From NCBI GenBank assembly GCA_009839975.1, contig VXOP01000382.1:1383-51275 (forward strand): 49,893 nt of DNA. The letters are read 5' to 3'. The notes below the pieces were generated by a model. The model saw only the letters and a program-made list of their open reading frames with translations. It searched no databases and had not been told where the DNA came from. Made by a program: the position numbers and the translations under genes. Positions within the stretch are counted from its first letter, which is position 1, and each line of letters opens with the position of its first letter. This document shows, piece after piece, positions 4,777 to 32,782 of the stretch. Source of the DNA: Candidatus Poribacteria bacterium (GTDB lineage Bacteria > Poribacteria > WGA-4E > WGA-3G).

Positions 4777-4803
4777 GTCGTACTCCTTATTCGGATTTAG
4801 GGT

Positions 4804-4842
4804 TACGGAATTCCGTATACCAATGTAGCCTTATTTAACCAA
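4804..4842 (-). promoter_or_regulatory. Possible pup promoter overlapped by a 14-bp palindrome
   Basis: On the minus strand, TTGGTT (4837-4842) and TATACG (4814-4819) are separated by 17 bp, a fair sigma70-type match 28-66 bp upstream of the pup start. The perfect palindrome TACGGAATTCCGTA (4804-4817) overlaps the -10 element and could be an operator. This rests on pattern matching only. Confidence 0.3.
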
Positions 4843-4876
4843 CTATAATCAACAGGGTTTACATTATTAAACAAAA

Positions 4877-6364: not shown

Positions 6365-6406
6365 ATTATTTTTCGGAGTGCAATACTGACGTAAAGTTAC
6401 TGTATG

Positions 6407-6519
6407 TATAGTGGATTTCAGAAATAATGAAACACTCCACAACGGGCGAGGAGACCTCGTCCCTACGCGGGGTGGTCTACAAACGCTGAAATGTCTCTTT
6501 AATTAATGACCTAACTATA
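6407..6519. repeat. Miniature inverted-repeat element, copy 1 (113 bp)
   Basis: The element starts TATAGTGGATTTCAG and ends (read from the other strand) TATAGTTAGGTCATTAA, an imperfect terminal inverted repeat. It carries a hairpin core, GGGCGAGGAGACCTCGTCC. A second, clearly homologous copy lies at 46056-46178 with the same ends, the same core and the same GAAATGTCTC segment. It is non-coding and sits between mpa and dop. The TATA ends would fit TA target duplication by an IS630/mariner-type transposase, but no such gene is present here. Confidence 0.65.
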
Positions 6520-6550
6520 ATCTCACTCATTTCAGTATAATAATGATACT

Positions 6551-9682: not shown

Positions 9683-9688
9683 ATTACT

Positions 9689-10264: not shown

Positions 10265-10287
10265 TCCATTTATCCAACAAAACTAAC

Positions 10288-10881
10288 CTATGTTTTAGCA
10301 GAAAATACTTTACGGTTTCCGTATAAAAATTCAATTCCAGATGCGACAGTTAAAACAACCGGTAGAAGCATCATAAAAAAAATCGGACCATACTGTTGTA
10401 TAACAAACTCTGTGTCTATAAAGAATATTAGTAGAACTAAACTGATAGTAATAATAGTCAGTTGTGTTGCCGTCTTATATTTCCCCCATTTGTTTGCAGA
10501 TATAACATCTCCATTCTTAGCAACGACAAAAATACGGACTGTCGTTACGACGAACTCACGTCCGAGTATAACCACTACCATCCATATAGGAATAAGTCTG
10601 ACATTATTTACTAAAAGTTCATGTTGAAATAGACAGAAACTAATCAGTGCTGTTGCTACTAATACCTTATCAACAATAGAGTCCATGAAACTACCGAATT
10701 CTGTTATACCCTCTTTTCGTGCGATTTTTCCATCTAATAGGTCAGTTATAGCTGCTAGGCCGAAACAGACTGCTGAAGGAAGCATCATTTTCGCACGAAA
10801 GAAGAAGAAAAAAGGGACAGTTAGCAATAAACGCGTAAAAGTCAGAAGATTAGCCAAACGAAAATATTGATGAGAACTCAT
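10288..10881 (-). CDS. pgsA: CDP-alcohol phosphatidyltransferase, PgsA type (left copy)
   Basis: The 197-aa inner-membrane enzyme most likely makes phosphatidylglycerol-phosphate from CDP-diacylglycerol and glycerol-3-phosphate. The family motif DG(x2)AR(x8)G(x3)D(x3)D is complete in DGKIARKEGITEFGSFMDSI-VD (about residues 49-71). The start NLLTFTRLLLTVPFFFF and several hydrophobic helices fit PgsA. In this copy the region 5' of the ATG is the duplicated tail of lolA and then truncated recA, not intact lolA. It is identical to 11884-12477. Confidence 0.88.
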   Translation of the reverse strand: MSSHQYFRLANLLTFTRLLLTVPFFFFFRAKMMLPSAVCFGLAAITDLLDGKIARKEGITEFGSFMDSIVDKVLVATALISFCLFQHELLVNNVRLIPIWMVVVILGREFVVTTVRIFVVAKNGDVISANKWGKYKTATQLTIITISLVLLIFFIDTEFVIQQYGPIFFMMLLPVVLTVASGIEFLYGNRKVFSAKT

Positions 10882-10903
10882 AAATGCCTATTTTTCCGAA
10901 AAA

Positions 10904-11278
10904 TCAATCACCTCTGCATCCTGTGTCCAGGGCGTGTTCTACATCAATAAATGCAGCGATTCCACCCCTTTTCTGTGCTTCAGCAACGATGTGTAATGCT
11001 AACGTTGTCTTCCCTGTTCCTTCATGTCCAAAGACTTCAACGATTCTACCGCGTGGAACACCCCCAACACCTAATGCCAAATCAAGTGCAAGTGCGCCAG
11101 TAGGTATAACCTCCACTGGAACAACTTCGTCACCTGTTAGACGCATGATGGCACCTTTTCCATAGGCACGTTCAACTTGAGAAATAGCTTGGTCTACAGC
11201 TTTTCTCTTCTCTGCTGCATTTTTCTGTTCTTCAGCACTTAATTCATTTTCCACATTCGTTCTATCATCTTTCGCCAT
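10904..11278 (-). pseudogene. recA: Truncated recA (first 119 codons) created by tandem duplication
   Basis: The first 119 codons are identical to the intact recA. After HALDT the frame crosses the duplication junction at 10922/10923, reads GCRGD out of frame through the lolA tail, and stops at 10904. The fragment keeps the N-terminal helix and Walker A but lacks Walker B, both DNA-binding loops and the C-terminal domain, so it cannot be an active recombinase. If translated, it would be a 124-aa RecA N-terminal fragment with its own normal start and ribosome binding site. It could poison RecA filaments; that is speculation. Confidence 0.9.
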
Positions 11279-11284
11279 ATTACT

Positions 11285-11860
11285 TTACTCCTTACCCAAA
11301 TGAAATCTACTCATCGGCGTATATACTGCTCCAGTTGGGCGCAATTCGCTTTTGACAAGTGTAATCTCATCTACTGCCATAGATGTATTCTGTATCGTCT
11401 GATATTCCTCAAACAGATCAACGTTTCCTCTCAAGTCTTTCTGTTGTCTCAGTCTTGCCAATGTTACATGTGGATGAAATCGTTCATCACTCTTAACATC
11501 ACAGTGCAACAGGGCGTTGTTAATGTATTTACTTAAATCTGTCGTTATGTTTCCCCCTTGCTTTAATCCTATCCATAATACGCGTGGACGTGACAAATTC
11601 GGAAATGTGCCAATTCCACCAAATTCCAGATAAAAAGGTTTCTGTTTTATTGCGACTTTGTCTATAGCATTACAGACATCAGAAATACTATTTTTCTTTA
11701 CGTCCCCAAGGAACTTCAATGTCAAATGGAAGTTTCCGGTTTTTGTCCAAGATGCTTTTCCAATTTCTGTTCTCAATTCATTCTGAATCTTCTCAAAAAC
11801 CCTTTGAACGCGGACTGGAATCTCAATAGCAACAAAGCACCTGATGTAAACAGTTTTCAT
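11285..11860 (-). CDS. thpR: RNA 2',3'-cyclic phosphodiesterase ThpR (right copy)
   Basis: The product is the same 191-aa protein as at 9689-10264, with both HxTx motifs intact. It lies between the pgsA copy that follows lolA and the truncated recA, so it keeps the ancestral upstream context (lolA-pgsA-thpR) but has lost a functional recA downstream. Both copies look fully functional from sequence; if the duplication is real, gene dosage is doubled. Confidence 0.88.
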   Translation of the reverse strand: MKTVYIRCFVAIEIPVRVQRVFEKIQNELRTEIGKASWTKTGNFHLTLKFLGDVKKNSISDVCNAIDKVAIKQKPFYLEFGGIGTFPNLSRPRVLWIGLKQGGNITTDLSKYINNALLHCDVKSDERFHPHVTLARLRQQKDLRGNVDLFEEYQTIQNTSMAVDEITLVKSELRPTGAVYTPMSRFHLGKE

Positions 11861-11883
11861 TCCATTTATCCAACAAAACTAAC

Positions 11884-12477
11884 CTATGTTTTAGCAGAAA
11901 ATACTTTACGGTTTCCGTATAAAAATTCAATTCCAGATGCGACAGTTAAAACAACCGGTAGAAGCATCATAAAAAAAATCGGACCATACTGTTGTATAAC
12001 AAACTCTGTGTCTATAAAGAATATTAGTAGAACTAAACTGATAGTAATAATAGTCAGTTGTGTTGCCGTCTTATATTTCCCCCATTTGTTTGCAGATATA
12101 ACATCTCCATTCTTAGCAACGACAAAAATACGGACTGTCGTTACGACGAACTCACGTCCGAGTATAACCACTACCATCCATATAGGAATAAGTCTGACAT
12201 TATTTACTAAAAGTTCATGTTGAAATAGACAGAAACTAATCAGTGCTGTTGCTACTAATACCTTATCAACAATAGAGTCCATGAAACTACCGAATTCTGT
12301 TATACCCTCTTTTCGTGCGATTTTTCCATCTAATAGGTCAGTTATAGCTGCTAGGCCGAAACAGACTGCTGAAGGAAGCATCATTTTCGCACGAAAGAAG
12401 AAGAAAAAAGGGACAGTTAGCAATAAACGCGTAAAAGTCAGAAGATTAGCCAAACGAAAATATTGATGAGAACTCAT
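11884..12477 (-). CDS. pgsA: CDP-alcohol phosphatidyltransferase, PgsA type (right copy)
   Basis: The 197-aa product is identical to that of 10288-10881, with the complete CDP-alcohol phosphotransferase motif. This copy retains the original neighbour: the lolA stop is 6 bp upstream of its ATG, so lolA and pgsA are probably co-transcribed. Both proteins serve envelope biogenesis (lipoprotein transport and phospholipid synthesis), which makes the pairing sensible. Confidence 0.88.
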   Translation of the reverse strand: MSSHQYFRLANLLTFTRLLLTVPFFFFFRAKMMLPSAVCFGLAAITDLLDGKIARKEGITEFGSFMDSIVDKVLVATALISFCLFQHELLVNNVRLIPIWMVVVILGREFVVTTVRIFVVAKNGDVISANKWGKYKTATQLTIITISLVLLIFFIDTEFVIQQYGPIFFMMLLPVVLTVASGIEFLYGNRKVFSAKT

Positions 12478-18632: not shown

Positions 18633-19835
18633 CTATAAGGATTCTGCTGCAAAGATTGTCAGGCATAATTCTTCGTTATGGAGTTCATAGAGAGGTGTTT
18701 TTCCACTCAATTCTTCGCTTTCGTTCAGAATGATGCCGACACCTTCACCACGTCCATCTAAAAAGTGTCTTCGCTTCACTTGATTTTCTACAACTTCATC
18801 TAAAGTAATTTCCGACAGTAGACGTGCTAAGAGTTCATTACGGGTTGCTTGACTATAGGGTAGTTTTTCTATTGTTACAGTATTTGCTAATGCACCTGGG
18901 GAATATAGTTCAAGACGATCAGCAAACATGAACAGACGTATTTTTGACTCGCCTTTAGAATAATCTCTGTGAACGACTGCGTTAACAATTGCTTCAAATA
19001 TTGCACGCATACTATATTGGGGTTGGTCTATCCTTCCAACTTCCTTACGTGCTGATACCTTATTGTGTTTTTGAACAAATTGGTATGCATCTATAATTTG
19101 TTGATCAAGTGGTCCTCTAAAATCTTTGGCATCAATCTGGTAATTGGCATCTTTTACTTTACTGCTATAATAGACAGCTTGAATAAAACTGTTGTAGAGA
19201 TAATCATCGGGTGTGTCGTGGCACATCAATACACCGGCAACAGAAGCACGAATCTCCCGACCTTCTTGAACGAGTAAAGTTCTTTTCAGGAGTAGGTCTT
19301 CTATATCTTCTTCAGATACATCTTCTTTGATGAATCGTCGATAGTGCGATTCTCTTAATGTGCCTTTATGGGTGTTTGGAACTAATTGTTCATCAAATCT
19401 GATAATTCTGGCTTGAGAACGTCTTTGCATTAACCGTGCCAACTGGTCGGGCGGCAATTCTATCTTACTACTTCCTCTTCGGGTAAAATATCCATTAGGA
19501 GATCTGTGAACAAAAAGACTTCTCGGCACCTCTGTTTTTAATATGTTTTTATCATCAATCCGCAATTTTTCTGTGAAAAAGTCAACAGCGGGTTTAATGC
19601 TATCTGTGCATATTTCAACAACCATTTTTTCTACTCTATCCAATTCCTGTTGTTCGAGTCCGACGATCTCTTTGTTGTCATCAATACCGATCAGTATTGT
19701 TCCTCCTTGGGCATTTGCAAACGCAGCTATCTCGTCTGCCAAACTGTCTCTGTGTGGCATCACTCTTTTGAACTCAATTGTTGTGTCTTCACCAAGTATA
19801 ATTTTCTCTATAAGTTCAGTTACACTATGAAACAT
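18633..19835 (-). CDS. AlbA_2 (Schlafen-type) domain plus ATPase protein
   Basis: The 400-aa product starts with an AlbA_2/divergent AAA-4 domain (TTIEFKRVMPHRDSLADEIA, FANAQGGTILIGIDDNKEIVG, YFTRRGSSKIELPPDQLARL) and continues into a HATPase-like C-terminal part (MRAIFEAIVNAVVHRDYSKG, LFMFADRLELYSPGAL, ATRNELLARLL). Such proteins were long annotated as RecG-like or transcriptional regulators. Related AlbA_2 domains occur in Schlafen nucleases and in several phage-defence operons. It starts two bases after the trlF stop, with GGAGAT inside the last trlF codons, so the two genes are tightly coupled. It is the last gene of the five-gene island operon. Confidence 0.85.
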   Translation of the reverse strand: MFHSVTELIEKIILGEDTTIEFKRVMPHRDSLADEIAAFANAQGGTILIGIDDNKEIVGLEQQELDRVEKMVVEICTDSIKPAVDFFTEKLRIDDKNILKTEVPRSLFVHRSPNGYFTRRGSSKIELPPDQLARLMQRRSQARIIRFDEQLVPNTHKGTLRESHYRRFIKEDVSEEDIEDLLLKRTLLVQEGREIRASVAGVLMCHDTPDDYLYNSFIQAVYYSSKVKDANYQIDAKDFRGPLDQQIIDAYQFVQKHNKVSARKEVGRIDQPQYSMRAIFEAIVNAVVHRDYSKGESKIRLFMFADRLELYSPGALANTVTIEKLPYSQATRNELLARLLSEITLDEVVENQVKRRHFLDGRGEGVGIILNESEELSGKTPLYELHNEELCLTIFAAESL

Positions 19836-19837
19836 AA

Positions 19838-22474
19838 CTAATCTCCGAGATGAATACGCTTAAAACGCTGTTCAAATGCCTGTTCTCCACCTTCAAGAGT
19901 ATTACATATTGCGTCCCGGACTTTCTTTTCCTGTATATTGGAAGCTAGTCTTACCCGAGTTTCAGTACGCACGACATGAAGTGGAAAAACTATTTCTGCA
20001 TTGCCGTTAATCACAATGTTGGCATTGTGGGTCACAACGATGACCTGACGCTTGCTTTTCGTATTTCGTAACTGTTTGACGATCAAGTCGTAAATTAACT
20101 CGTTATCCAAATCGTCTTCGGGTTGATCTAATAGAAGTGGCTCATCACCGTAGGAGAGAATAAATGCCAATAGAGCAGCTGCTTTTTCTCCAGGTGATCC
20201 CAGTTTAATCGATTTGCGATTGGGACCATAGGTGATTTCCAGTTCATCTCCAGGTAACCACAACATTAAATCGATCAAAGATTCTGGTATCAACGACTGC
20301 AAATGATTAGCGAACCATTTTTGTTCAGCCTTTCTATCCCCATTACGAATTGCTATGATTGTTTCCTTAAGCTGATAAATCTTTTCGTTGTCCTCATGTT
20401 CATAGATTTCTTTTAAATTCTCAAAATCTCTATCAAAACGATTAGGACATTGCAATATACGTCGAATCTCTTTCTCAATATTGTCCCAAGTCTCTCCATA
20501 AGGCAAGATTTCTATATTAACGAATTGATTGCCTTGTAAAATAGAGGTTAAAAATTCTTGACGTTTTTCTGAGAGCATTTTTCTATTCTCTTTGATTTGC
20601 TCAAACACCTCTTGTTTTTCATCCTCTAACTTATGCAAACGCGACTTGAGATCATTAATTGAATCTAATTCTCTTTGTACGTTCTTTTGTTGTGTCAGTA
20701 GCAAAGGATATTTATCTGGATCTATACCTTGTTGTTCAAGTTCGGAACGCAATTGCTCATACTGTGCCATATCTGTCTTGAGTAATTGCATCCAATCTGC
20801 AGTATTTTTCTCAATTTGCCACTCAGTAATAACAGAACTCGCCTCTTGAGCCAATTTGCTGAATCGGTCATCAATAGATTGCCACTTTTTGTTTGTTGTT
20901 TCTATAGCCATCAAAATATCCGTGTGTTCGCTAAAATGCTGTGAATTAAAATCCGCTGGAGCAATAGTTCCCTGTGTCTCCAAAAGACGATCGCGCATAT
21001 CTTCCCATTTACGCACTAAACGTTCAAGTTCGTTTAACTGTTGCTGCCGATTACGGTAATTTTGCAGCACGTCTTTATGTCCCGATTTTTCGATCTGCTC
21101 AATCTGTCTTGTGAGATCATTCAACTCCCCACGCAACCTTCTTTCCTCAGCAATTTTATCATTCAACTCTCGTCTATTAATCTCAATATGTTTGTAACGA
21201 TTTTCCAAGTCTCTTTTCTGTGTTTTAATCCTCACAGCATCAACTTGCGGTGCTTCATCAATAATCTCAATCAGCGCACTTGGCTTCTTAGATAATTCAA
21301 AAATCTGCTTTTGACTATAAATACGAACTGGAAAAAGTGATCTAATCTCTCCATCACAAGATTTCCAAGTTCCATCATCTTTTTCCTCTTCTATAGAGGG
21401 ATAATCTGGATCTGGATTGTTGGACCAATTCAAGCGATATCGCACTTCATCTTTGCGATAGATTAAAAATATCTTACTTTCTTCAATCAGCAGGTTAGCA
21501 TTTCCTACTTCAAAGTACCTGCTACTATCGGATTTTAATGTATCTGGAAGATCTTTATCCCTCCGTAGAACCAAGCGCATGAATTCCAACAATGTTGACT
21601 TGCCAGTACCTCGTCCACCAATGATTGCATTGAAAAATGGACTGAATCGACAAGTCAGTGGTTTAGAACGTCCAATGTGCTTAGCATTGCAAACTTCCAA
21701 TTCATCTAAATAGAACTTTACACGTCGGTTCGGGTCAGAGTTTATGTCACGATTTACGGAAGCAGTGCCGTCTATCAGCGCAAGTTTTAGTCCTTCTATA
21801 GATGGTTTAGCCATTTTGATCCAAGTAAATGTACCAAAGTTTTCTTTCTTGAAATCGTGTACATCAGACCCAATGACTTCAGTCCATTGTAATTTTTCGT
21901 CAATATATAATTGGGGTTTTTGATAATTGCTATCACATAACTCCATTGCGTAAATATTTTGATTTTGCAATATCTGTTGCAATGATAATCCATTATCTTC
22001 AAACAATCCACTTTTTCCGTCAACATGTGCAGGAATAGGTATACCGCCATGTTCTGTAATTACATCAATGACATCGGTAAGACTTTTCTTTGTCACACCA
22101 TCGGTCTTTCCTTTTGTGCCATGATATTCAACTGCTCCGAGCAATCCATCAATATGTCCCTTGTCCTTATCGCTTCCAAAGATTGCTAATACATGGACAT
22201 TTCCACTTACTGAGATTTCTACACCTGGAAAGAGATATAGGGTCTTATACCAATCTGGAGGGTTATTCTTCAGTTCATTCAAAACGCTTTTTAATTCATC
22301 AATCCAGCCGCCACTGTTATGGTCGGTAATCGCAACACACTCAATTCCCTTATCCATAAATGCTTTCAACCATGATTCATGCGTTATATCTTCGTCTTTG
22401 TAATCCGAGGCAGGGGTGTGTGTATGAAAATCAAATTTCCACCACCGAGCTCCCGGAAATTGCAACTCATTCAT
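19838..22474 (-). CDS. TrlF-type PHP phosphoesterase fused to SMC-like ATPase
   Basis: The 878-aa product combines a PHP metal-phosphoesterase domain and an ABC/SMC-type ATPase. PHP ligands are visible: FHTHTP (His17, His19), ITDHNSGG (Asp51, His52), GVEISV (Glu86), PIPAHVDGKSG (His150) and GSDVHDF (Asp204, His206). The ATPase has Walker A GGRGTGKST (286-294), a long coiled coil (about 400-680) and Walker B/D-loop region EPLLLDQPEDDLDNELIYD with the VVTHNANIVI switch near 820. PHP plus SMC proteins of this type (TrlF) are thought to act on nucleic acids and are frequent in defence islands. The gene is 51 bp from the upstream TIR gene and 2 bp from the AlbA_2 gene. Confidence 0.85.
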   Translation of the reverse strand: MNELQFPGARWWKFDFHTHTPASDYKDEDITHESWLKAFMDKGIECVAITDHNSGGWIDELKSVLNELKNNPPDWYKTLYLFPGVEISVSGNVHVLAIFGSDKDKGHIDGLLGAVEYHGTKGKTDGVTKKSLTDVIDVITEHGGIPIPAHVDGKSGLFEDNGLSLQQILQNQNIYAMELCDSNYQKPQLYIDEKLQWTEVIGSDVHDFKKENFGTFTWIKMAKPSIEGLKLALIDGTASVNRDINSDPNRRVKFYLDELEVCNAKHIGRSKPLTCRFSPFFNAIIGGRGTGKSTLLEFMRLVLRRDKDLPDTLKSDSSRYFEVGNANLLIEESKIFLIYRKDEVRYRLNWSNNPDPDYPSIEEEKDDGTWKSCDGEIRSLFPVRIYSQKQIFELSKKPSALIEIIDEAPQVDAVRIKTQKRDLENRYKHIEINRRELNDKIAEERRLRGELNDLTRQIEQIEKSGHKDVLQNYRNRQQQLNELERLVRKWEDMRDRLLETQGTIAPADFNSQHFSEHTDILMAIETTNKKWQSIDDRFSKLAQEASSVITEWQIEKNTADWMQLLKTDMAQYEQLRSELEQQGIDPDKYPLLLTQQKNVQRELDSINDLKSRLHKLEDEKQEVFEQIKENRKMLSEKRQEFLTSILQGNQFVNIEILPYGETWDNIEKEIRRILQCPNRFDRDFENLKEIYEHEDNEKIYQLKETIIAIRNGDRKAEQKWFANHLQSLIPESLIDLMLWLPGDELEITYGPNRKSIKLGSPGEKAAALLAFILSYGDEPLLLDQPEDDLDNELIYDLIVKQLRNTKSKRQVIVVTHNANIVINGNAEIVFPLHVVRTETRVRLASNIQEKKVRDAICNTLEGGEQAFEQRFKRIHLGD

Positions 22475-22525
22475 AACAGATCACTCCTAATTCTGTGAAT
22501 TTGTGTTTCCCAAATCTATTATACC

Positions 22526-23152
22526 TCAATACAGAGGTGTTGGTTTCAAAAGTCGACTATTCTTCTCATAGATGTCTTGGATGCCGTGGTTGTCTTGGAT
22601 GCTTTTTGCCTCGTAGAGCGGGACACCTTGGTGTTTTTTCTGCAAGATGTCAGCAACACTATGTGCCCACTTCTCAACTTCTTCAGAAGTAGTAAGGGGT
22701 ATCCCAAGTGAGACGAAAGCAGGAACCTTACTGATATCTACTTCATGGATCAGATGTGCTATCAGAGGGTGTGGCTGATCCAAAGGCGGAGTTTCTTTAA
22801 AGGGTTGCGCATATCGTTGTCGTCCTCGGGCACCGCCAATTTCATAAGGTATCCAAGGTGATGTAAACGTTCCTGGTCCGATGATACCTAATAAAGCAGA
22901 AGATGCATCCAATCCCCGTTCAATACACAAAGCAGTTTTGATGTCATCATTTTGGGCTTGTGCGTGCTGCATACATTTATCGTCTTCATCTAACCAATAA
23001 TCAAGTCTGTCTACTTCCTTTAGTATTTCCACACATTTTCGTGCCATGAGTTTGTCACATATTGTGCGTCTGTAGGAAATGAACACAATTGATTCTGTGT
23101 CTGGTTCAAAACTGCGGACAGGACCAACTTCAAAAAAGTTCTTTATAGACAT
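22526..23152 (-). CDS. TIR-domain protein (second TIR gene)
   Basis: The 208-aa product is a bacterial TIR-like protein. SIVFISYRRT (about 21-30) is the betaA strand and box-1, DRLDYWLDEDD (48-58) the BB-region, and SSALLGIIGPGTFTSPWIPYEI (84-105) includes Trp100 and Glu104, placed like the catalytic glutamate of NAD-cleaving TIRs. The rest, ending at IYEKNSRLLKPTPLY, has no recognised domain. TIR enzymes in prokaryotic immunity cleave NAD+ or make cyclic ADP-ribose-type signals. It lies downstream of a ThsB-like TIR gene and upstream of trlF on the same strand. The ATG has an AAGGAAAG ribosome binding site. NADase activity is inference. Confidence 0.75.
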   Translation of the reverse strand: MSIKNFFEVGPVRSFEPDTESIVFISYRRTICDKLMARKCVEILKEVDRLDYWLDEDDKCMQHAQAQNDDIKTALCIERGLDASSALLGIIGPGTFTSPWIPYEIGGARGRQRYAQPFKETPPLDQPHPLIAHLIHEVDISKVPAFVSLGIPLTTSEEVEKWAHSVADILQKKHQGVPLYEAKSIQDNHGIQDIYEKNSRLLKPTPLY

Positions 23153-23266
23153 TGTCTTTCCTTTTCATCTGTCAAACGTTAATAGGGGACAATTACTTTC
23201 TAAGTTTTATATAAAATGAACAACGTCAATCTATACCATTTTATATTGCTAAAGAATTGATCTCCA

Positions 23267-23743
23267 TTATTCTATATCTTCTAAGTTGGTTAGATCTTCT
23301 ACGTCAGCAAGATCGGCAAGAGCTCGTGAGTATTTGCGTAATTCCACCTGAAGCAACTTAAGTTCTTCACGAAAAGCGTTGCATTCTGCCTCTTTCTCAA
23401 AATCACCGGCAATACTTTTTGGATGCCACTTGGCAGTAAATGGACGAACCACTTGGTTAAGAACTACGACTGCAATTTTCGTAAACTCAATGCAGTTTTG
23501 TCCTTGTTCTTTAAGGATTCTTCTCGTAGTTTTAAACAGCGAATAAATACTATCTAACGCTGTTTTCTCATCACCAGATTCGGTGGGCAATGCCTGTGTG
23601 GTAATTCTTGTAAGTAACTCAATATACAGTTTCCAAGCAGCTTCTCTGTCCCCTGGTTTGGGAGACCACTCTGCCTGTAAAATGCTTGCATTAATTTTCA
23701 GACTATCCAATCCCCATTGTTTCAACCAATTTTTTAAATTCAT
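23267..23743 (-). CDS. Small protein coupled to ThsB-like TIR gene, 158 aa
   Basis: I cannot name the family. The product is soluble, mainly helical and ends in an acidic tail (DLADVEDLTNLEDIE). Segments that look conserved are GDREAAWKLYIELLTRITTQ, GDEKTALDSIYSLFKTTRRI and CIEFTKIAVVVLNQVVRPFT followed by AKWHPKS. No catalytic motif or membrane segment is visible. The ATG overlaps the stop of the TIR gene (ATGA) and has AAAGGTGG upstream, so the two are translationally coupled. That coupling suggests a partner or sensor subunit for the TIR protein. Confidence 0.75.
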   Translation of the reverse strand: MNLKNWLKQWGLDSLKINASILQAEWSPKPGDREAAWKLYIELLTRITTQALPTESGDEKTALDSIYSLFKTTRRILKEQGQNCIEFTKIAVVVLNQVVRPFTAKWHPKSIAGDFEKEAECNAFREELKLLQVELRKYSRALADLADVEDLTNLEDIE

Positions 23744-24300
23744 TTAGACCACCTTTCGCCCGAACGGTTATTTTTAAACGAATCACGAGAATTGACGGGC
23801 AGTATCTCTGTGCTTCGCCTTCGTTGAAAAGCGTCATGTATCCAAGACTGAACGGTACGTGGATTTTCGCTCCAATTGTAAATTTTAGCATATCCACACT
23901 CAATATTATCGTGGAGTCTTGGAGGTATTGTGTGTATGTAATAGTTGTTAGGATAATCGGGTGGTCGCGGATATGTCGGCAATAAAATCCCTAAGAGACC
24001 AGAACGAGAACTGGCTTTTGTCTGCCGTATACTGGAGCCAATTTCCCAATCGACATATTTTCGTTGCCACGTATGGGCACCGATGAGAACAACTGTCACT
24101 GTGGAATCTTGCAGATAGTTCTCCCTTATGATTTGAAAAACCCGATCTGTTGAGAGTCTGGTATCATCAATGTCTCCTATTTCAACGGATTCTGAAACCA
24201 TGATATCATGGATGTCTGAAAACATGCGTTCAAACCAGTCCCGATAATATTGGTCTTCATCATGGTAATAGCTAACAAAAACTCGATGTCTGTTGTTCAT
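23740..24300 (-). CDS. ThsB-like TIR (DUF1863) protein
   Basis: The 186-aa product is a TIR-like protein of the DUF1863/Thoeris ThsB type. It starts HRVFVSYYHDEDQYYRDWFE, continues with TRLSTDRVFQIIRENYLQDS and VTVVLIGAHTWQRKYVDWEI, then GLLGILLPTYP. Glu86 in DWEI is the probable catalytic glutamate. In Thoeris, ThsB senses infection and makes a cyclic ADP-ribose signal for the effector ThsA. No ThsA-like SIR2 or SLOG protein is seen here. I chose the ATG at 24300 because AGGAGG lies six bases upstream; the longer frame from 24333 has no such site. It is the first gene of the five-gene unit. Confidence 0.82.
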   Translation of the reverse strand: MNNRHRVFVSYYHDEDQYYRDWFERMFSDIHDIMVSESVEIGDIDDTRLSTDRVFQIIRENYLQDSTVTVVLIGAHTWQRKYVDWEIGSSIRQTKASSRSGLLGILLPTYPRPPDYPNNYYIHTIPPRLHDNIECGYAKIYNWSENPRTVQSWIHDAFQRRRSTEILPVNSRDSFKNNRSGERWSK

Positions 24301-24352
24301 TAGACGCCTCCTTTGTTGTTTATGTTTAAACACTTTAGTCTCTTAATATACA

Positions 24353-24560
24353 TTATCCATCCGCTATTTCAGCAGGCATATTGTCAATAATCCGCGCCGA
24401 TCCCACACTCATATAAACAATACGTTTAATTGCTGCAACCAAACCACGAGGGCAACAAACCAACCGTTCGGATCGTTGACAATACCGTTGTCCTTGTCTG
24501 TTTTTTATAGTCCCAAACAATTAACTATCCCAGAGCGGTGGACATCTTCTGGGACAATCG
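24353..24560 (-). pseudogene. Decayed 3' end of a type ISP-like restriction enzyme gene, tail A
   Basis: The minus strand encodes TDKDNGIVNDPNGWF, then after a frame change AAIKRIVYMSVGSARIIDNM and PAEIADG before a TAA at 24353-24355. This matches the end of the intact enzyme at 27956 (TDKDSGIVNDPNGWF … AIKRIVYVSVESARIIDGLP). Homology seems to continue to about 24560 with more decay. It is a scar of a former restriction gene, lying between the TIR operon and the 316-aa gene. Confidence 0.8.
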
Positions 24561-24575
24561 AATTTAAATGTGTCA

Positions 24576-25511
24576 TCATATCTCGTAGCGATAGGTCATT
24601 TGTTTTTTCAGATGCCAAAAGAGTGCCCTCACACCGTCAACAGTGGTTTCAGCTTCCATGAGTTCGGGTAGGCTGTTTACTGTGAACTCAGGGTCATCCA
24701 TTGGTGTCGTGATATAGTGCATAACTTGTATGGGTGTCCAATATATGAAATCGCAGTAAATCTTATGTTCTATTTCATCAGAAAACCAACCACTTTGTCG
24801 CATTTCTACCAATTCAGCAAAATTACTCTGTATACCGAATTGCATCAGTGAGATGACGTGTAATTGTTGATTGCCATTGCGCGTTTGATCATATTGTGTT
24901 TGGTATTCGTAAACTTGATCAAGGAGTTCTTTGGCTTTTTGGTTCCAAGGGTGTTTATTGAGTAATAAACTAACAGGTTTACAAGTATACCAAAGACCTT
25001 CTAACGTTTGTTTTATATTGACGTGGTCGGGGGGTTGATTTTGAAAAAGTGATAATTGGTGGCTGTCGCTATCGTTCTGGATCGATATTAACAATTCTTG
25101 CCAGTGTTCACAATGTCTTGCAATGTTCTCCAATACTTTATCTTTGACTGATTCTTTCATTTCATGCACATCATAGTAATTTCCCCAGTCGCTACAGAAA
25201 TCATTGAAATCCATTAATGCAAAATGTAATATTTCAGATATCTCGTATCGTTTTTTCATCCATTCTAAGTGTGAAGACGGTTTGGGTAGATGTGTGAGTA
25301 TATGATATAGCATCACAAGGTTGCCTGTCTTTATTCCGTAATATCTCTCTTCTTTCTCTTCATTTTCAAGTTCGGTAAATGCTTCTTTTATTGTTTTGTT
25401 ACGCGATAATTTGTATGGATATAGCGTGAGAAGCGCATTTAGACGTTCTATCGGTTCGCGCAGTGCATCAAGTTCATTCTTAAGTTCTTTTTTCCATTCT
25501 TCTGGTGTCAT
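24576..25511 (-). CDS. Hypothetical island protein with QLSLF motif, 311-316 aa
   Basis: I do not recognise a family. The product is soluble and mostly helical, with many tryptophans and tyrosines. MTPEEWKKELKNELDALREP opens the chain. A polar linker near the middle holds SHQLSLFQNQPP; QLSLF (152-156) matches the consensus of sliding-clamp-binding peptides. I prefer the ATG at 25511, which has AAGGAAG five bases upstream; an in-frame ATG at 25526 is possible. The gene is bracketed by two decayed ends of restriction genes (24353-24560 and 25544-25645), so it was probably part of a restriction or defence cassette. No operon partner overlaps it. Confidence 0.7.
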   Translation of the reverse strand: MTPEEWKKELKNELDALREPIERLNALLTLYPYKLSRNKTIKEAFTELENEEKEERYYGIKTGNLVMLYHILTHLPKPSSHLEWMKKRYEISEILHFALMDFNDFCSDWGNYYDVHEMKESVKDKVLENIARHCEHWQELLISIQNDSDSHQLSLFQNQPPDHVNIKQTLEGLWYTCKPVSLLLNKHPWNQKAKELLDQVYEYQTQYDQTRNGNQQLHVISLMQFGIQSNFAELVEMRQSGWFSDEIEHKIYCDFIYWTPIQVMHYITTPMDDPEFTVNSLPELMEAETTVDGVRALFWHLKKQMTYRYEI

Positions 25512-25543
25512 ATCAACTTCCTTCATTATCTCTGTACCTATTC

Positions 25544-25645
25544 TTAGGTTCCAGTTGCCATTATCTCAGCAGAAAGGTTGTCTATTATACACGTAGATTC
25601 CACACTCACATAAACAATACGCTTAATAGCCGCAGTTATACACAA
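25544..25645 (-). pseudogene. Decayed 3' end of a type ISP-like restriction enzyme gene, tail B
   Basis: In one frame the minus strand reads TAAIKRIVYVSVESTCIIDN, then LSAEIMATGT and a TAA at 25544-25546. The intact enzyme ends TAIKRIVYVSVESARIIDGL, then PAEITSD. Homology stops abruptly near 25645, beyond which the sequence is unrelated. The scar lies between the DUF2779 gene and the 316-aa gene. Confidence 0.8.
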
Positions 25646-25715
25646 GAACTGTGTAAGATTGATTTTCAGCTATCCATATACATTCTGGTTTATCGCTATA
25701 AGTAATACTCTTTGA

Positions 25716-27200
25716 TTACAATCCACACAAAACTTTATGAATTTCAAGCATTGCTAGTGTATCCAGCTTGCAATATTCTTTTAGGTGTTCAATCATATCG
25801 CTTTGTTTACTTTCACTTGTTGTATTAATCATTAGATCCCAGAGAGCTTGTGCTTCCAGACCATCGTGTACAACATCCAGATTTTTGAATGACAACGAAG
25901 GCACTAAAACAGGGAGCACATCCTTGAGAGAATTGGAACCGCAAAAATCAGGATGCATATAATGGTTTTTAAATATGTCTAACTGATCCCAAAGCCTATT
26001 AATGATTGATTCAAGTTCAGAAGAGTATTCAGGAAAAGAGACAGTAAGTTCATTAAGTCTCAACCGTTCAAAAGTGGCATTAAAAACTACTACAGAACCA
26101 GAAGGTGAAATATGGTTAAACAAAGATTCTAACAGAGGTCTCCTTGGATCGGATGTATCGGTATGTAGATATTCGTAATGTGTAGCAGATCCATCCGATT
26201 TCAATACGTGGCAACTATACTGAAACGGAAAGTGTTGGCAAGGACGTACCTCCTCAAACCTTGGGATCGGCGGATTATCCGTTTCGAAATCAAAGAAGTG
26301 AACTGGATACTCTAAATCGGATAAAAGACGTTGCACTGCCGGAATATCAATTACTGGTTGTTCATCTATAACGCTATTGACGTAAGTCCGTTGTTTTTCA
26401 CTCAGGGCAAAATCGTCTGGGACATCCTCAAGACTAAAGATACCTCTTTCTATCAACTCGCCCTTTTTATTCCAACGAAGTCCTGGAATAGTAAAAATGG
26501 ATTTTTGGGGAACATCCATCCAACAATACGTCTCCTTAAAAGGACAAGTATAAGGCTTTTTACACTGATCTCCAATCAAAACCTGTGGTTCATCGTTGCC
26601 ATTGATTATGGTTTTGAATGTTTCGACATTGCTAGGAACATCGCCCATCAACTGATTGACCTGTTCCGTTGCATCCTCAATAATAAACAAATTACCCAAA
26701 TCTGGATAAACACACTCTTTACTATCTATGAGCATCAATTTTGTTTTGGAGATAGATAACCCGTGTCCAGCTAAGACGTACTTTTGGATAGCTAAGTCAT
26801 GTAAGTATTCTACCTTTACTATTCTTGAGTCCTTAACTGTTTGATTGACTGTTGATGCTTTTACTTCAATAATGTTCCACGAGTTTGAATCTTTTTGGAT
26901 AATATCACATCTGACCAGAACATCATTGAAAATGAAAGAAGCTTCGAAAATACAGGAATCGCCACGTTCTATTGCTTCTGCTGTTTGTTCTACAGAAACC
27001 AACGGGTCTATAGCATCAATCAGTACTCCATTAGTAAAGTGGTCACGAGCTAAAATCCCCACTTCTTTACTCTGATCAAATTTTCGTTTTTGCGATATAG
27101 AAGTATCTGCAGCCCTATTTGGGTGTTTCACTTCATTCCATAGGCGTTTATGACATTGTAGACCACTCAAGTACTTTGATTTCGTAAGATAATTTGCCAT
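25716..27200 (-). CDS. DUF2779 protein: Cas4-like Fe-S nuclease plus DEDD exonuclease
   Basis: The 494-aa product has two apparent nuclease modules. The N-terminal one resembles Cas4/AddB: LSGLQCHKRLW (Cys16), VRCDI (Asp99), IIEVKAS (Glu112, Lys114) and three more cysteines at 213, 219 and 226 (CKKPYTCPFKETYC), which with Cys16 could hold a 4Fe-4S cluster. The C-terminal DUF2779 part looks like a DnaQ-type exonuclease: HFFDFETD (Asp304, Glu306), VVFNATFERLRL, WDQLDIF (Asp408) and EYCKLDTLAM (Asp480). The role of DUF2779 proteins is not established to my knowledge; the two modules suggest DNA or RNA end processing. The ATG has GAAGGAG. A miniature element lies 27 bp upstream, so its promoter may be element-derived. 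Confidence 0.82.
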   Translation of the reverse strand: MANYLTKSKYLSGLQCHKRLWNEVKHPNRAADTSISQKRKFDQSKEVGILARDHFTNGVLIDAIDPLVSVEQTAEAIERGDSCIFEASFIFNDVLVRCDIIQKDSNSWNIIEVKASTVNQTVKDSRIVKVEYLHDLAIQKYVLAGHGLSISKTKLMLIDSKECVYPDLGNLFIIEDATEQVNQLMGDVPSNVETFKTIINGNDEPQVLIGDQCKKPYTCPFKETYCWMDVPQKSIFTIPGLRWNKKGELIERGIFSLEDVPDDFALSEKQRTYVNSVIDEQPVIDIPAVQRLLSDLEYPVHFFDFETDNPPIPRFEEVRPCQHFPFQYSCHVLKSDGSATHYEYLHTDTSDPRRPLLESLFNHISPSGSVVVFNATFERLRLNELTVSFPEYSSELESIINRLWDQLDIFKNHYMHPDFCGSNSLKDVLPVLVPSLSFKNLDVVHDGLEAQALWDLMINTTSESKQSDMIEHLKEYCKLDTLAMLEIHKVLCGL

Positions 27201-27227
27201 TGTTATTCTCCTTCATTATTTTGCACA

Positions 27228-27433
27228 ATAAGTCGTTTTGGAATTGAGAAATTTGACATTTACTGTCAAAAGGGCATCGCTTCCTTATCTGGTAAGCATT
27301 TAGAACAATGAACATAGCGTCCTTAAAAAAATAAAGAATATCCTTGTTGTGAGAATCAGATTAGGCAATACCACTTATGTTTACTGGGTTAATACCGCTA
27401 TTTAGATATTTTCTCAAGTCCAAAACGACTTAT
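27228..27433. mobile_element. Putative MITE, 206 bp with 24-bp terminal inverted repeats
   Basis: The left end begins ATAAGTCGTTTTGGAATTG, and the right end, read on the other strand, ATAAGTCGTTTTGGACTTG. The arms 27228-27251 and 27410-27433 match at 23 of 24 positions. The interior (158 bp) is non-coding and holds a perfect hairpin TTGACA-tttac-TGTCAA just inside the left arm. TA lies at both tips, compatible with TA-targeting transposition. No transposase is present. Confidence 0.6.
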
Positions 27434-27480
27434 ACCGTTAAAGTTTAATACGTTATGATGTATTTTTGCAAATCTTTAAT

Positions 27481-27540
27481 GAAGTTTACATTACCAAAGA
27501 ATTCATCAAAAACAGGATGTTTTATGATCTGCTGTGCCTA
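27481..27540 (-). pseudogene. Internal fragment of a type ISP-like restriction gene
   Basis: The minus strand reads AQQIIKHPVFDEFFGNVNF, which parallels AQHIITRPVFEALFDNYDF of the intact enzyme (around residue 765). The DNA also aligns with about 30460-30420. Flanks on both sides are not homologous, and a stop follows, so this is debris of a divergent homologue. Confidence 0.6.
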
Positions 27541-27679
27541 CGTACTAATTGTGTTTTGGCGCGTTAAAGCATCGTGAAGTATACCTCTCAACGTTGTGTG
27601 GAAAGAAATAAATGTGAAGTGCAACGTTATCAGGATGCAGTAGCAAGTTTGTGATGTTGTTAACAATTCTGTTGTAGAC

Positions 27680-27920
27680 TCATTCCATGATGTTTGAAGT
27701 TATCCACCTCATATAATCTCTTTCTGTAGAAACTTCCCGCCAATTATCTTCGATTGTGTATCCATCAGTTAGAATGATTGGGTTGAAACGCCGATCTACA
27801 ATCCCTATTGTAATTTATTATTTTATTGATTATCTCAATGCTGTCCCGTGAAGGACTCACAAGGAACACAATCCGCATCGGACGTATGTCTATGTAAATG
27901 GAATATGGATTAGTAAACAT
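27680..27920 (-). pseudogene. Frameshifted remnant of an unidentified gene
   Basis: From an ATG at 27920, one frame reads SIYIDIRPMRIVFLVSPSRD and SIEIINKIINYN. A second frame then gives GIVDRRFNPIILTDGYTIED and NWREVSTERDYMRWITSN, ending at a TGA at 27680. The join lies around 27800. The text looks like real protein interrupted by an indel. I cannot name the family. It probably belongs to an earlier content of the island. Confidence 0.45.
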
Positions 27921-27955
27921 AATGTTAGTTGAGTTTCTCCAACAGATGTACCGTT

Positions 27956-30900
27956 TTAATCTGAAGTTATCTCAGCAGGCAGACCATCAATAATCCGAGC
28001 AGATTCCACACTCACATAAACAATACGCTTTATTGCCGTAACCAAATCACGCGGATCAGCAAACCAACCGTTTGGGTCATTAACAATGCCACTATCTTTG
28101 TCTGTTTTGATATAATACCTGTCAATGAACCACTCCAGCGGTGTTCTACCATTGACAACATATCCCGATGAGTCTTTCGGAATATTTGTTATGCGGACAT
28201 TATCATTGATGGCAAAGATTCTTTTCTGATCATCAATAAACTTCATTGATCTTTCAGTTAGCAGGAAAAGGTTCGGGTCAGCATGTTCAATATCAGTTGG
28301 TGGTGATTTCATATTGGGATACTCAACGCTAAGTGGGTGTTGTTCACACGTCTCATAGTTGAGGTGGAGTTCTGCTAATTTATATCCTGCTTCAGCGAAA
28401 GCAGTGAAGTCTGGTGCATAAGGGATACGCGGGAGCATCTTTGATAAGTCGTTTGCAAACTGTTCTCGGTAACTGGGGGCATGGAGAATGCCGTAGACAT
28501 AATAAAAGATGTCGTCTTTGGTGATTGTATCATCACTGTAATGTTCTTGGAATGCCTTTAGTGCTGTGTCTGAGATGTTGTCAATACGATCAGGTGAGTC
28601 GTCAACATCAAGAAGGGTTTCTGATGCGTCTTGCTTATCCGATGATTTTGGATATTGCCACCGTGGGAAGCATTGAGCTCCTGCTTCATTGAAATTGAGA
28701 TCTGGCATTGTATCAGTCATTAGAACAGAATATTGATTTTTCCAACTTTTGCCGGGAACACAAATCACACGGTTTTCGTCAGAAATGTCAAAGAAAATTT
28801 GTCCCATGTTTTCTTGTGCAAAGGCATAATCAGCATAGCAATTAATACCAATAAATGGACGATACATGACCTTTCGGATGTAGTCTTCTTTGAATTCAAC
28901 CAATTTCTTGCGTTCCAGTTTCTTCTTGAGATCTGCACCCCACTTAATATGTGAGTTGTGCAGTAGAGTTACTTCATCCACAGTAAGTTCAGGATTTTCA
29001 TCAAGTTCAGCAATTGCATTGAGGTAGTCTTGTGTCATCCGTTTCGCGTTTTCAGCACAAACATCGTATGAGAAATTGTAGATGTAAACATCCCTACCTG
29101 TTCCGTATCCTCGCGAATACAACCCAAAAATGGCATCATCTTTCTTTCTTGATTTTGCATCCTTCGTACCAAGTGGATAAAACTGACTAAATGCTTCACT
29201 GCGTTGCCCGATCCAATCGTAATGTGTATCAGGTGTAATGGTGTTCCAATCACTGAATCCTGTGATTGACTCTGCCTCATGTAGTGCCTCTAATTTTTCC
29301 TCGCGTGTAAGATAGTCGCCGATGTCACGGTATTGAATTTTACAACCCTTGTATGTCGCGTTTGGATTTTTGACAAGGATTGAAATAGCAACGGGTGCTC
29401 GCGAACCACTACCAAATATTTTGCCTCCTTCTTGACGTGATCGATCTCCTTGGGTGCGCTGATTTCCTCGGAGATGAAGAACGTGGATTGAACTAAACTC
29501 CTCTGCTAAACATGCACGGACTCCTGAATCGGTGTTTCCATCAATCCATGAACCGCTGGTAACAAAGGCAATGATACCCTTTTCACCAATTCTGTCGGAT
29601 GCCCATCGAATCGCCATCTTATAGGTATCGTATAGACTATTCTTATTGTTACCTTGTGAGTACTCAGCATAAGTTCCCTTTATACGTTCTTCAAGTTCAG
29701 GGTAAGGTACGTTTTGATTGTTGTCTGCGGCACTCCTCTGTCCCATTGACCAAGGTGGATTACCAACAATGACTTGGATTGGCAGTTTCTGTTGACGTTC
29801 GGCGCGTTTGTTATTATCTGGCAGCCATTCTTTTGGGAAAAGGGTTGTAACGTCTTTTTTGTTAAGATTGAAGGTGTCGGTTAGGACGATGCCGTTGAAA
29901 GGTTCGTAAGTGCTGTCTTCTCCGCGTCTACCACGGAATGTCTCTTCTATGTTGACGGTGGCGATGTAGTATGCCAACAGGACGATCTCGTTTGCATGGA
30001 GTTCTTCTCGGTATTTGCGTTCAAGGTCGGCATCTTGGATAATATTGGACTGCAGCAGACGTGTGAGAAATATACCGGTACCGGTGAATGGATCCAACAC
30101 ATGCACACCTTCATCGCTAAGACTGCGTCCGAATTCGTCTTGCAATACCTCGTTGGCACTATGGAGTATGAAATCAACTACCTCAATTGGTGTGTAGACA
30201 ATACCGAGACGTTCTACCTCCTTTTTCAAGGCAGTCACGAAAAACTTCTCGTAGAGTTCCAATAGGACGCGTTGACGTGCTTCGCTATTGTCAAGTCCCT
30301 GTGCACGCATTCGGACGCTTTCATAAAACCCTTCCAGATCACGCGTTTCGTTTTCCAGTCCGAATTCGCTAAAATCGTTTTGGAGTTTGTTTAGTGCGTT
30401 TGCTACTGGGTTTCCGGATGCGAAATCGTAGTTATCAAAGAGTGCTTCAAAGACAGGGCGTGTAATAATGTGTTGTGCCATCATATCAATAGCACTCTCA
30501 CGGGTGATTGAGTCGTTGATTGTTCCCATTAACTCGTTGTGGAAATCGTCAAACCACTCTTGTAGTGCGCTGTTTTCAGGATTTTCCAGTAGGTTTTCTA
30601 TCCGTCCGACGAGTCTTTTGAATATATCTGCGACATCTTTTGCCCAACTTTCCCAGTATTTTCTATCACCGCATTTCTCCACTATTTTAGCGTAGATGGC
30701 ATCGGCTGGAATACCGAAAGGCAGCAGTAACTGATCAGGATCTACTGTTCCTTCTCCATATTCACCATCGCCATTTTCATCTTCAAAGATAATAATTTCA
30801 GTCGGTTCGTTGTTAAGGTCAATTTTATTGATTTCGGCATTAAGCCTGTCATCGTGGGAACGGAGTGCGCGGAGGACACCCCACACGGTAGCGAATCTTT

Positions 30901-32782
30901 CGTTATCGTTGAGTGCGTCAACAGGGTCAACACCTGGCGGAATTGCAACAGGCAAAACGATATAACCGTATTCCTTATCGGGTGCCTTACGCATCACGCG
31001 ACCAACTGCCTGCACAATGTCAACGTGTGAGTTGCGCGGTGACATGAACAGCACAGCATCAAGTGCGGGGACATCAATACCTTCGGAGAGGCAGCGTGCA
31101 TTGGATAGGATACGACAAACATCATCTGTATCGCCTTTTAGCCATTCAATTAGTCTTTTTCTATCAAGAGCATTCTTTGTTCCATCAACATGTGCAGTTT
31201 CGCATTTGAAATTGGCTGGACGACTTTCTTCTGGTGTCTCTTCTATAGCACTCTCAATAATGCCATTCCAATGTTTCTCAAGGTTTTGTGATGACCTAAT
31301 GGTGTTTGTGAATGCGATGGCGCGTGTGAGCGGTTTGATTGTGTCGTCATCTGGTGATTTTCTTTCGGGATTCTGCAATGCACGCCAACAGCCGACAATT
31401 TTTGCTGCATCGCTGATGTTTACTTCACTGCCACCATTGCTGAGATAGTTGTGTAGCGTACCCTGCACACGTTGTTCTGACATTGCGAGCACAACGACTT
31501 TGTAATCGGAGAGGAGTTCTTGTGTTACTGCTTTTGAAAATGGGAGTCTGTGAAATTCAGGTCCATAAGTGTTCGGATCGTCCATAGAGAACACGTCAAT
31601 ATCGTGTTTTGCTGCTTTTGTTTTCGCGCCTTGCGTATAGAGGCGAGGTGTTGCTGTCATATAGAGTCGTTTTTTGGCGCGTATACGTTCGGTATCGTGG
31701 ACGAGAACGAAAGGTGAGGTTTTGTCGTCAGGTTTGTCAATACCGGTAGTTCTGTGTCCTTCATCGCACAGAATTAAATCAAACTCAGGTGCTCCTGCCT
31801 CTTGTGCTTCTGCGACTTTCGGAAGTGATTGATAGGTGCAGAATACGACACGCATGCTGTCTTCATCGTCAGTACTGTTAGATCGCTGTAGTGCTTCGGA
31901 GATAACAATTTCATCGGTGGTAACAGGGAATTCCAATTCCATGAGTGTAACGTCTTCATTCGCTTTTCCTGCCTTTGTATCGGAGCATATACCGATGTAG
32001 CGATGTGGAATTGCTTGTTGTTCTGCCCATTCACGCATTGCTTGTGCAAAGAGTCCGATGGATGGGACAAGATATAACACCCGACCCCCGATACCCGCGA
32101 TGTCCTCTGCGATTCGGAGTGCGGTGAAGGTTTTGCCTGTGCCGCATGCCATGATGAGTTTACCACGGTCAGAATCTTTGAATCCGTTGATAACATCATC
32201 AAATGCCTCTTTTTGATGATCCCGTAGGCTGAACGTTTCCAGTTGATAGTTAAGTTGGTCTGGTTCTTGGGAGCTGAGGTTGGGCCACTGGACAGGTCGG
32301 CTTGCGAGGTCTGCAGCACTAATCCGTTGGCATGGGGGTTCTAATCCATCAATGGCTTTTTTTAGGTTGGTAGTCCAACTTTTACCGGTATCTACAAATA
32401 TTCGTGCGGTGAAAGGTTGCCGATTGGATTCTGAGATGAACGTATCAATATCGGATTTTGAGATCCGTTTGTCTTCTGCATAGCATTTGCACTGGATAGC
32501 ACAAATACCGTTATTACGTTCTATTGCGACGAGGTCTATACCGCGATCTACACGGTCAAATCCGGGTTGGTTTTCTGCCCATTCTCCCCATAGATATACT
32601 TCTGAGAATCGTTTTCTATAGAAAGGGTCTTCAAGTAGATATGCTCTTATCAATCGTTCAAAGAGTCTGCCTTTACCGAATTGTGTGTTTACGTTTTGTC
32701 GGATGTAGTTGAGTGCATCGTAGAATCCATTATCTGACTCTTCGTTTGTAATAAATAAAGGGATCTGTATTGCATCCGCCAT
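27956..32782 (-). CDS. Single-chain restriction-modification enzyme, type ISP-like
   Basis: The 1,608-aa product joins nuclease, translocase, methyltransferase and target recognition in one chain, as in type ISP enzymes such as LlaGI/LlaBIII. An Mrr-like PD-(D/E)XK domain is near the N-terminus (GIDLVAIE Asp83, IQCKCY Gln97/Lys99). An SF2 helicase follows: motif I MACGTGKTF (211-219), DEGHR, MTATPRLY and QAVGRVMR. The adenine N6-methyltransferase has DPFTGTGIF (about 897) and VGNPPWSMG (about 1003-1011). The last 450 residues should be the target recognition domain. All motifs look intact, so the enzyme should both modify and cut. It is the only intact restriction gene in the island; decayed relatives lie downstream. 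Confidence 0.88.
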   Translation of the reverse strand: MADAIQIPLFITNEESDNGFYDALNYIRQNVNTQFGKGRLFERLIRAYLLEDPFYRKRFSEVYLWGEWAENQPGFDRVDRGIDLVAIERNNGICAIQCKCYAEDKRISKSDIDTFISESNRQPFTARIFVDTGKSWTTNLKKAIDGLEPPCQRISAADLASRPVQWPNLSSQEPDQLNYQLETFSLRDHQKEAFDDVINGFKDSDRGKLIMACGTGKTFTALRIAEDIAGIGGRVLYLVPSIGLFAQAMREWAEQQAIPHRYIGICSDTKAGKANEDVTLMELEFPVTTDEIVISEALQRSNSTDDEDSMRVVFCTYQSLPKVAEAQEAGAPEFDLILCDEGHRTTGIDKPDDKTSPFVLVHDTERIRAKKRLYMTATPRLYTQGAKTKAAKHDIDVFSMDDPNTYGPEFHRLPFSKAVTQELLSDYKVVVLAMSEQRVQGTLHNYLSNGGSEVNISDAAKIVGCWRALQNPERKSPDDDTIKPLTRAIAFTNTIRSSQNLEKHWNGIIESAIEETPEESRPANFKCETAHVDGTKNALDRKRLIEWLKGDTDDVCRILSNARCLSEGIDVPALDAVLFMSPRNSHVDIVQAVGRVMRKAPDKEYGYIVLPVAIPPGVDPVDALNDNERFATVWGVLRALRSHDDRLNAEINKIDLNNEPTEIIIFEDENGDGEYGEGTVDPDQLLLPFGIPADAIYAKIVEKCGDRKYWESWAKDVADIFKRLVGRIENLLENPENSALQEWFDDFHNELMGTINDSITRESAIDMMAQHIITRPVFEALFDNYDFASGNPVANALNKLQNDFSEFGLENETRDLEGFYESVRMRAQGLDNSEARQRVLLELYEKFFVTALKKEVERLGIVYTPIEVVDFILHSANEVLQDEFGRSLSDEGVHVLDPFTGTGIFLTRLLQSNIIQDADLERKYREELHANEIVLLAYYIATVNIEETFRGRRGEDSTYEPFNGIVLTDTFNLNKKDVTTLFPKEWLPDNNKRAERQQKLPIQVIVGNPPWSMGQRSAADNNQNVPYPELEERIKGTYAEYSQGNNKNSLYDTYKMAIRWASDRIGEKGIIAFVTSGSWIDGNTDSGVRACLAEEFSSIHVLHLRGNQRTQGDRSRQEGGKIFGSGSRAPVAISILVKNPNATYKGCKIQYRDIGDYLTREEKLEALHEAESITGFSDWNTITPDTHYDWIGQRSEAFSQFYPLGTKDAKSRKKDDAIFGLYSRGYGTGRDVYIYNFSYDVCAENAKRMTQDYLNAIAELDENPELTVDEVTLLHNSHIKWGADLKKKLERKKLVEFKEDYIRKVMYRPFIGINCYADYAFAQENMGQIFFDISDENRVICVPGKSWKNQYSVLMTDTMPDLNFNEAGAQCFPRWQYPKSSDKQDASETLLDVDDSPDRIDNISDTALKAFQEHYSDDTITKDDIFYYVYGILHAPSYREQFANDLSKMLPRIPYAPDFTAFAEAGYKLAELHLNYETCEQHPLSVEYPNMKSPPTDIEHADPNLFLLTERSMKFIDDQKRIFAINDNVRITNIPKDSSGYVVNGRTPLEWFIDRYYIKTDKDSGIVNDPNGWFADPRDLVTAIKRIVYVSVESARIIDGLPAEITSD

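What the first reader, a model, noticed from the sequence alone, without database searches (positions are those of the whole stretch)
27228..27433. 206-bp MITE-like element 27 bp before a nuclease gene
Arms of 24 bp match at 23 positions, with a hairpin inside and no coding capacity. Its position directly ahead of the DUF2779 start means it likely supplies or disrupts that gene's promoter.
Basis: seen in the sequence. Interest (0 to 1): 0.5.

Follow-up and report, generated by a model that had tools for sequence, protein, structure and literature searches.

The report
Decayed IS1595-type MITE beside a nuclease gene
A short, gene-less piece of jumping DNA, a dependent relative of a known kind of bacterial insertion sequence, landed just ahead of a probable nuclease gene in an uncultured bacterium (Candidatus Poribacteria); it is ordinary, and nothing shows that it controls the gene.

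Summary
In detail: 24-bp arms, 23 paired, at 27228-27433, the only such pair in the window and absent from 20 random windows. Relatives move the true ends to 27224-27437 (214 bp). It is a MITE of the IS1595 family in a (by inference) Candidatus Poribacteria MAG. Its end pattern occurs in 51 of 58 genomes of the family. In the loci I fetched, such ends bound 1.14-kb insertion sequences with an IS1595 transposase (PF12762 + PF12760) and other MITEs, four of them internal deletions of such an IS. 8 of 21 end pairs have a perfect 8-bp target duplication. The window MITE is single-copy in its genome, but full-length relatives (89%, 76%) sit at other loci in two sister species. This copy looks old: mutated tips, no target duplication. 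The promoter idea is not supported: no promoter-like match on the gene's strand inside the element, and no end pair upstream of any of 14 other DUF2779 genes. No clean empty site was found, and no matching helper in its own genome. New member of a known kind; low interest.

The parts
27224..27437 (.). Full MITE, 214 bp, IS1595-type ends (CACAATAAGTCG... / CGGTATAAGTCG... read inwards)
27224..27251 (+). Left terminal inverted repeat with altered 5-base tip CACAA (consensus CGGAA or CGCAA)
27410..27437 (-). Right terminal inverted repeat with tip CGGTA (consensus CGGAA)
27252..27270 (.). Short hairpin TTTGACA-TTTAC-TGTCAAA just inside the left arm; present with small changes in the G032, G043, G037 and G033 copies
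27262..27399 (.). Interior; among the 158 loci held it matches only sister MITEs, no insertion sequence
25716..27200 (-). Neighbouring gene: DUF2779 protein (PF11074), 494 aa, intact; not part of the element
27201..27223 (-). Gap between MITE and DUF2779 start, holding a ribosome-binding-like AGGAG
   Evidence: read from the sequence
27726..27923 (-). Remnant of the 5' part of a gene that is open in G031, G043 and G014; upstream flank of the MITE

Best explanation
The element is a non-autonomous miniature transposon (MITE) whose ends belong to an IS1595-family insertion sequence of Poribacteria. Mechanism: an IS1595-type transposase made elsewhere binds ends of the type CGSAATWAGTCGTTTTGGACTTG, moves the element and makes an 8-bp target duplication (the duplication is seen in relatives; movement by that transposase is inferred from family knowledge). 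This copy entered the AT-rich spacer between a decaying gene and the DUF2779 gene in a stretch of defence genes. Its tips have since changed and no target duplication is left, so it is probably immobile. If the spacer is transcribed, the arms form a long RNA stem ending 23-27 nt before the start codon; an effect on expression is possible but only inferred.
For: Arms beyond chance. End pattern (up to 3 mismatches) in 56 of 84 phylum genomes, 51 of 58 in the family; my sum of the table is 226 hits against 4 for the reversed control pattern. Ends bound four 1.14-kb elements, three in G045 and one in G034; the intact G045 ORF matches DDE_Tnp_IS1595 (2.8e-29) and Zn_ribbon_IS1595 (1.1e-9). 8 of 21 end pairs have a perfect 8-bp target duplication and none a perfect repeat of 6, 7, 9 or 10. 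Sister copies in G032 (89%, full length) and G043 (76%), genomes with no DUF2779 match at E 1e-20. The window's right end matches the G045 element's end in 34 of 38 bases. MITEs of G045, G036, G030 and G047 are internal deletions of such an IS.
Against: No target duplication at this copy (4 of 8 bases), nor a perfect one at its two full-length sisters. Single copy in its own genome. The two IS1595 transposases of its own genome lie beside another end subtype (CGCAATAAGTAGTTT..; one end seen for each), so the helper is not identified. Of the four 1.14-kb elements only one has an unbroken transposase ORF. The interior matches no insertion sequence. 13 of the 21 end pairs lack a perfect duplication. 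No clean empty site.
Confidence: 0.92

Rival explanations
1. The MITE supplies or disrupts the promoter of the DUF2779 gene, like Correia elements in Neisseria.
For: Position 23-27 bases before the start codon. Precedents for promoters in MITEs are described in a review (PMC10969869, passages).
Against: Promoter-like sites not above chance and none on the gene's strand within the element. The same MITE in G032 lies between the 3' end of a methylase gene and the start of a DUF2971 gene, with its opposite end facing that gene. None of 14 other DUF2779 loci has an end pair. The large ORFs on both sides are on the minus strand, so read-through from upstream is possible.
Confidence: 0.12
2. The 214 bp act as an RNA leader: transcribed with DUF2779, the stem formed by the arms is cut by a double-strand RNase or shields the ribosome-binding site.
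For: RNA fold of the gene's strand -60.8 kcal/mol, z -6.6, none of 200 shuffles as good. RNase III cutting at MITE arms is reported in Neisseria (PMC10969869, passages).
Against: Any inverted-repeat transposon gives such a fold; no element at the 14 other DUF2779 loci; no Rfam family (one sub-threshold match, outside the element).
Confidence: 0.1
3. A conserved intergenic regulatory or RNA element, not a transposon.
For: The interior is shared by three copies, 89% and 74% identical to the window's.
Against: The copies lie at different loci and face the next gene with either end; their ends equal those of insertion sequences.
Confidence: 0.03
4. One end of a larger composite unit that moved the neighbouring defence genes.
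For: In G045 an IS and a MITE of this end type enclose two genes and share an outer 8-bp repeat TTTTCTTT.
Against: No further end in the window at up to 3 mismatches of 22 specified bases, nor elsewhere in the genome.
Confidence: 0.03

Closest known systems
IS1595 family insertion sequences (DDE_Tnp_IS1595 transposase)
   Same: Relatives with the same ends carry a PF12762 + PF12760 transposase and in 8 of 21 end pairs an 8-bp target duplication, as described for the family (PMC8101967, passages).
   Different: The window element has no transposase, altered tips and no target duplication.
MITEs of bacteria and archaea in general (PMC10969869, passages; PMC3852290, passages)
   Same: Short, no ORF, arms like those of an insertion sequence, presumably moved in trans.
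   Different: Only one copy in its own genome; helper there not identified; interior is not a deletion product of an IS seen here, unlike the G045, G036, G030 and G047 MITEs.
Correia elements of Neisseria (PMC10969869, passages)
   Same: Small inverted-repeat element lying just ahead of a gene.
   Different: No promoter-like site toward the gene was found here.

Membership tests
MITE | Short element with terminal inverted repeats and no ORF | tested here: met
   (no ORF of 80 aa or more)
MITE | Copies at different loci | tested here: met
   One copy in its own genome; one full-length homolog each in G032 and G043 at other loci
MITE | Ends match an insertion sequence | tested here: met
   Right end 34 of 38 bases with the G045 IS; left end 29 of 38 with it, up to 31 with the G030 element
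MITE | Target duplication at this copy | tested here: not met
   TTATTTTG / TTAAAGTT, 4 of 8; I read this as decay
MITE | Empty site in a relative | tested here: inconclusive
   G041 homology stops 5 bases past the gene start; the other flank matches only parts, mainly a pseudogene remnant
IS1595 family (as non-autonomous member) | Partner IS with DDE_Tnp_IS1595 and zinc ribbon | tested here: met
   for one G045 element; two other G045 copies and the G034 element have broken ORFs
IS1595 family (as non-autonomous member) | 8-bp target duplications in elements with the same ends | tested here: met
   8 of 21 pairs
IS1595 family (as non-autonomous member) | Movement by that transposase | not testable with these tools
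   needs a transposition assay
Promoter-carrying MITE (Correia type) | Outward promoter toward the gene | tested here: inconclusive
   None by sigma-70 consensus; other promoter types are not covered by the scan

The most novel reading that the evidence does not exclude
In Poribacteria, IS1595-type MITEs and insertion sequences with interchangeable ends form composite units that move genes between islands (G045 shows an IS-genes-MITE unit with a shared outer 8-bp repeat), and the window's MITE is a leftover of such traffic in a defence island, now serving as a structured leader for the DUF2779 nuclease gene.
Probability: 0.05. Interest if true: 0.45.

Novelty: new member of a known kind. Interest (0 to 1): 0.17.

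Why it matters
It adds a MITE lineage, with insertion-sequence relatives and an end consensus, to a phylum for which three paper searches listed nothing on MITEs by title or abstract start; the one paper holding both 'Poribacteria' and 'miniature inverted' mentions them separately (PMC9097414, passages). Practically it explains a conspicuous inverted repeat and warns against reading it as a promoter or regulatory RNA. It would matter more only if the element proved to control the nuclease gene.

Tried and rejected
Helper in the own genome: two IS1595 transposases found, beside another end subtype, with only one end seen for each; a MAG of 454 contigs, 95% complete, may lack the right one. Empty site: tried through the DUF2779 homologs, the right flank (parts of it match in 4 other genomes) and the flanks of the G032 and G043 copies; genes are shared but spacers are not, so no base-exact empty site. 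G037 has the G032 methylase gene's 3' end without this MITE but with other end-like sequences there. Rfam: one sub-threshold snoRNA match outside the element. Viral contigs (exact end pattern), phages and plasmids: no match. Metagenome contigs were not searched. Literature: searches (15 of 17 papers listed; 1 of 1; 8 of 9) show nothing on Poribacteria MITEs in titles or abstract starts; two of these papers were checked by passages and did not describe any; the others were not opened. (IS1595 and MITE) listed no Poribacteria paper by title.

Limits of the counts: hits beyond the listing limit were not examined; 20 places were chosen for fetching. Of the 21 end pairs some are probably chance or mismatched pairs (for instance L079 11484-12188, L008, L118); I kept them in the denominator. 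At the 14 other DUF2779 loci at least 1.19 kb upstream was seen; L089 and L092 hold single weak matches to the end pattern (3 and 2 mismatches), no pair.

Full report
Setting. The window is contig C364 (1383-51275) of a 4.78-Mb MAG, 454 contigs, 95.4% complete. An exact end pattern in public genomes hit two contigs titled Candidatus Poribacteria, whose lengths equal those of contigs C139 and C103 of G036, a member of the window's genus; so the window is from Candidatus Poribacteria by inference.

Observation. The arms are 27228-27251 and 27410-27433, 23 of 24 paired. No other pair of 21 or more of 24 with a span of 60-430 bp exists in the window, and none arose in 20 random windows. The element has no ORF of 80 aa or more and folds better than all 200 shuffles, as any inverted-repeat element would.

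Boundaries. Elements with the same arms show five further conserved bases outside them, CGGAA or CGCAA. In the window these read CACAA on the left and CGGTA on the right, so the element is 27224-27437, 214 bp, the same length as the G032 copy.

Family. The end pattern with up to 3 mismatches occurs in 56 of 84 genomes of the phylum: 15 of 18 in the genus, 36 of 38 in the sister genus g3, 0 of 2 in g2, and 5 of 26 outside the family, these last being single 3-mismatch hits near the control level (the sums, 226 real against 4 reversed-control hits, are mine). Not every hit was listed, and I fetched 20 places. Pairs of ends bound four 1.14-kb elements, three in G045 and one in G034, and short elements of 164-589 bp. 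One G045 element has an unbroken ORF, which matches DDE_Tnp_IS1595 and Zn_ribbon_IS1595; the other three are broken. 8 of 21 end pairs are flanked by an identical 8-mer, and none by an identical 6-, 7-, 9- or 10-mer counted from the same ends. IS1595 members usually have 8-bp duplications, and most groups a zinc-finger domain (PMC8101967, passages); an AT-rich 8-bp target is reported for a relative (PMC7835479, passages). In the genus, 15 of 18 genomes have a PF12762 match, 13 over the cut-off.

Kinds of MITE. MITEs in G045, G036, G030 and G047 match the G045 insertion sequence in two or more separate stretches, that is, as internal deletions. The window MITE matches it only at the ends; its interior matches nothing among the 158 loci held except sister copies: G032 (89%), G043 (74% over the interior, 76% over all), and short pieces in G037 and G033, which share one place by their flanks.

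Mobility. G032 has its copy between a DNA methylase/HNH gene and a DUF2971 gene, G043 between two other genes downstream of an integrase-like ORF ('integrase-like' is my reading of the translation). Neither genome has a DUF2779 match at E 1e-20. So the lineage has moved. No perfect target duplication remains at the window copy (4 of 8), G032 or G043, and no clean empty site was found. In the own genome no other end is found at up to 3 mismatches, and its two IS1595 transposases lie beside a different end subtype.

Relation to DUF2779. The gene is intact and belongs to a family presumed to hold 3'-5' exonucleases (PMC3985635, passages). It occurs in 15 of 84 genomes; none of the 14 other loci has an end pair, with at least 1.19 kb upstream seen in each. 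G041, the nearest (74% protein identity), shares DNA only to 5 bases past the gene start. The scan for promoters gave 3 sites, 3.8 expected, none inside the element on the gene's strand. The upstream spacer holds a remnant (27726-27923) of a gene that is open in G031, G043 and G014. The simplest history is a decayed gene, into whose spacer a MITE fell, ahead of a gene that keeps its own ribosome-binding site.

Verdict.

Noticed in passing
window 27726-27923 (-): Truncated remnant of a gene whose frame is open over 560 codons, to the locus edge, in G031:C187, G043:C7 and G014:C61, starting MFT(N/H/R)PYSIYIDKRP; no Pfam match for the G031 frame at E 0.01.
   Followed up: partly
L037 (G045) 2096-5933: Insertion sequence, two genes (one with PD40 propeller repeats) and a MITE, with the same outer 8-mer TTTTCTTT on both sides: looks like a composite transposon made of an IS and a MITE. 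Random 8-mer pairs in this locus match at a rate of 2.75e-5; the inner flanks do not match each other.
   Followed up: partly
window 9327-12477: Two genes (191 aa and 197 aa) occur twice, identical, with 1596-bp spacing; a recent tandem duplication or an assembly artefact.
   Followed up: no
window 18633-32782: Defence-like stretch: type ISP restriction-modification enzyme, DUF2779, ThsB-like TIR protein, a second TIR match below Pfam's cut-off, Ppl-like protein, AlbA_2/Schlafen protein.
   Followed up: partly
window 1678-8347: By my reading of the translations (no search made), a Pup-proteasome cluster with two PafA-like ligases, proteasome subunits and an ARC/Mpa-like ATPase.
   Followed up: no
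L140 (G037:C62): End-like sequences downstream of the same methylase gene that has the MITE in G032, hinting at a repeated insertion spot.
   Followed up: no
G033: L116 892-2966 and L136 837-3101: Longer elements (2.1-2.3 kb) with this end type and perfect 8-bp duplications; L116 holds a transposase ORF plus another ORF.
   Followed up: no
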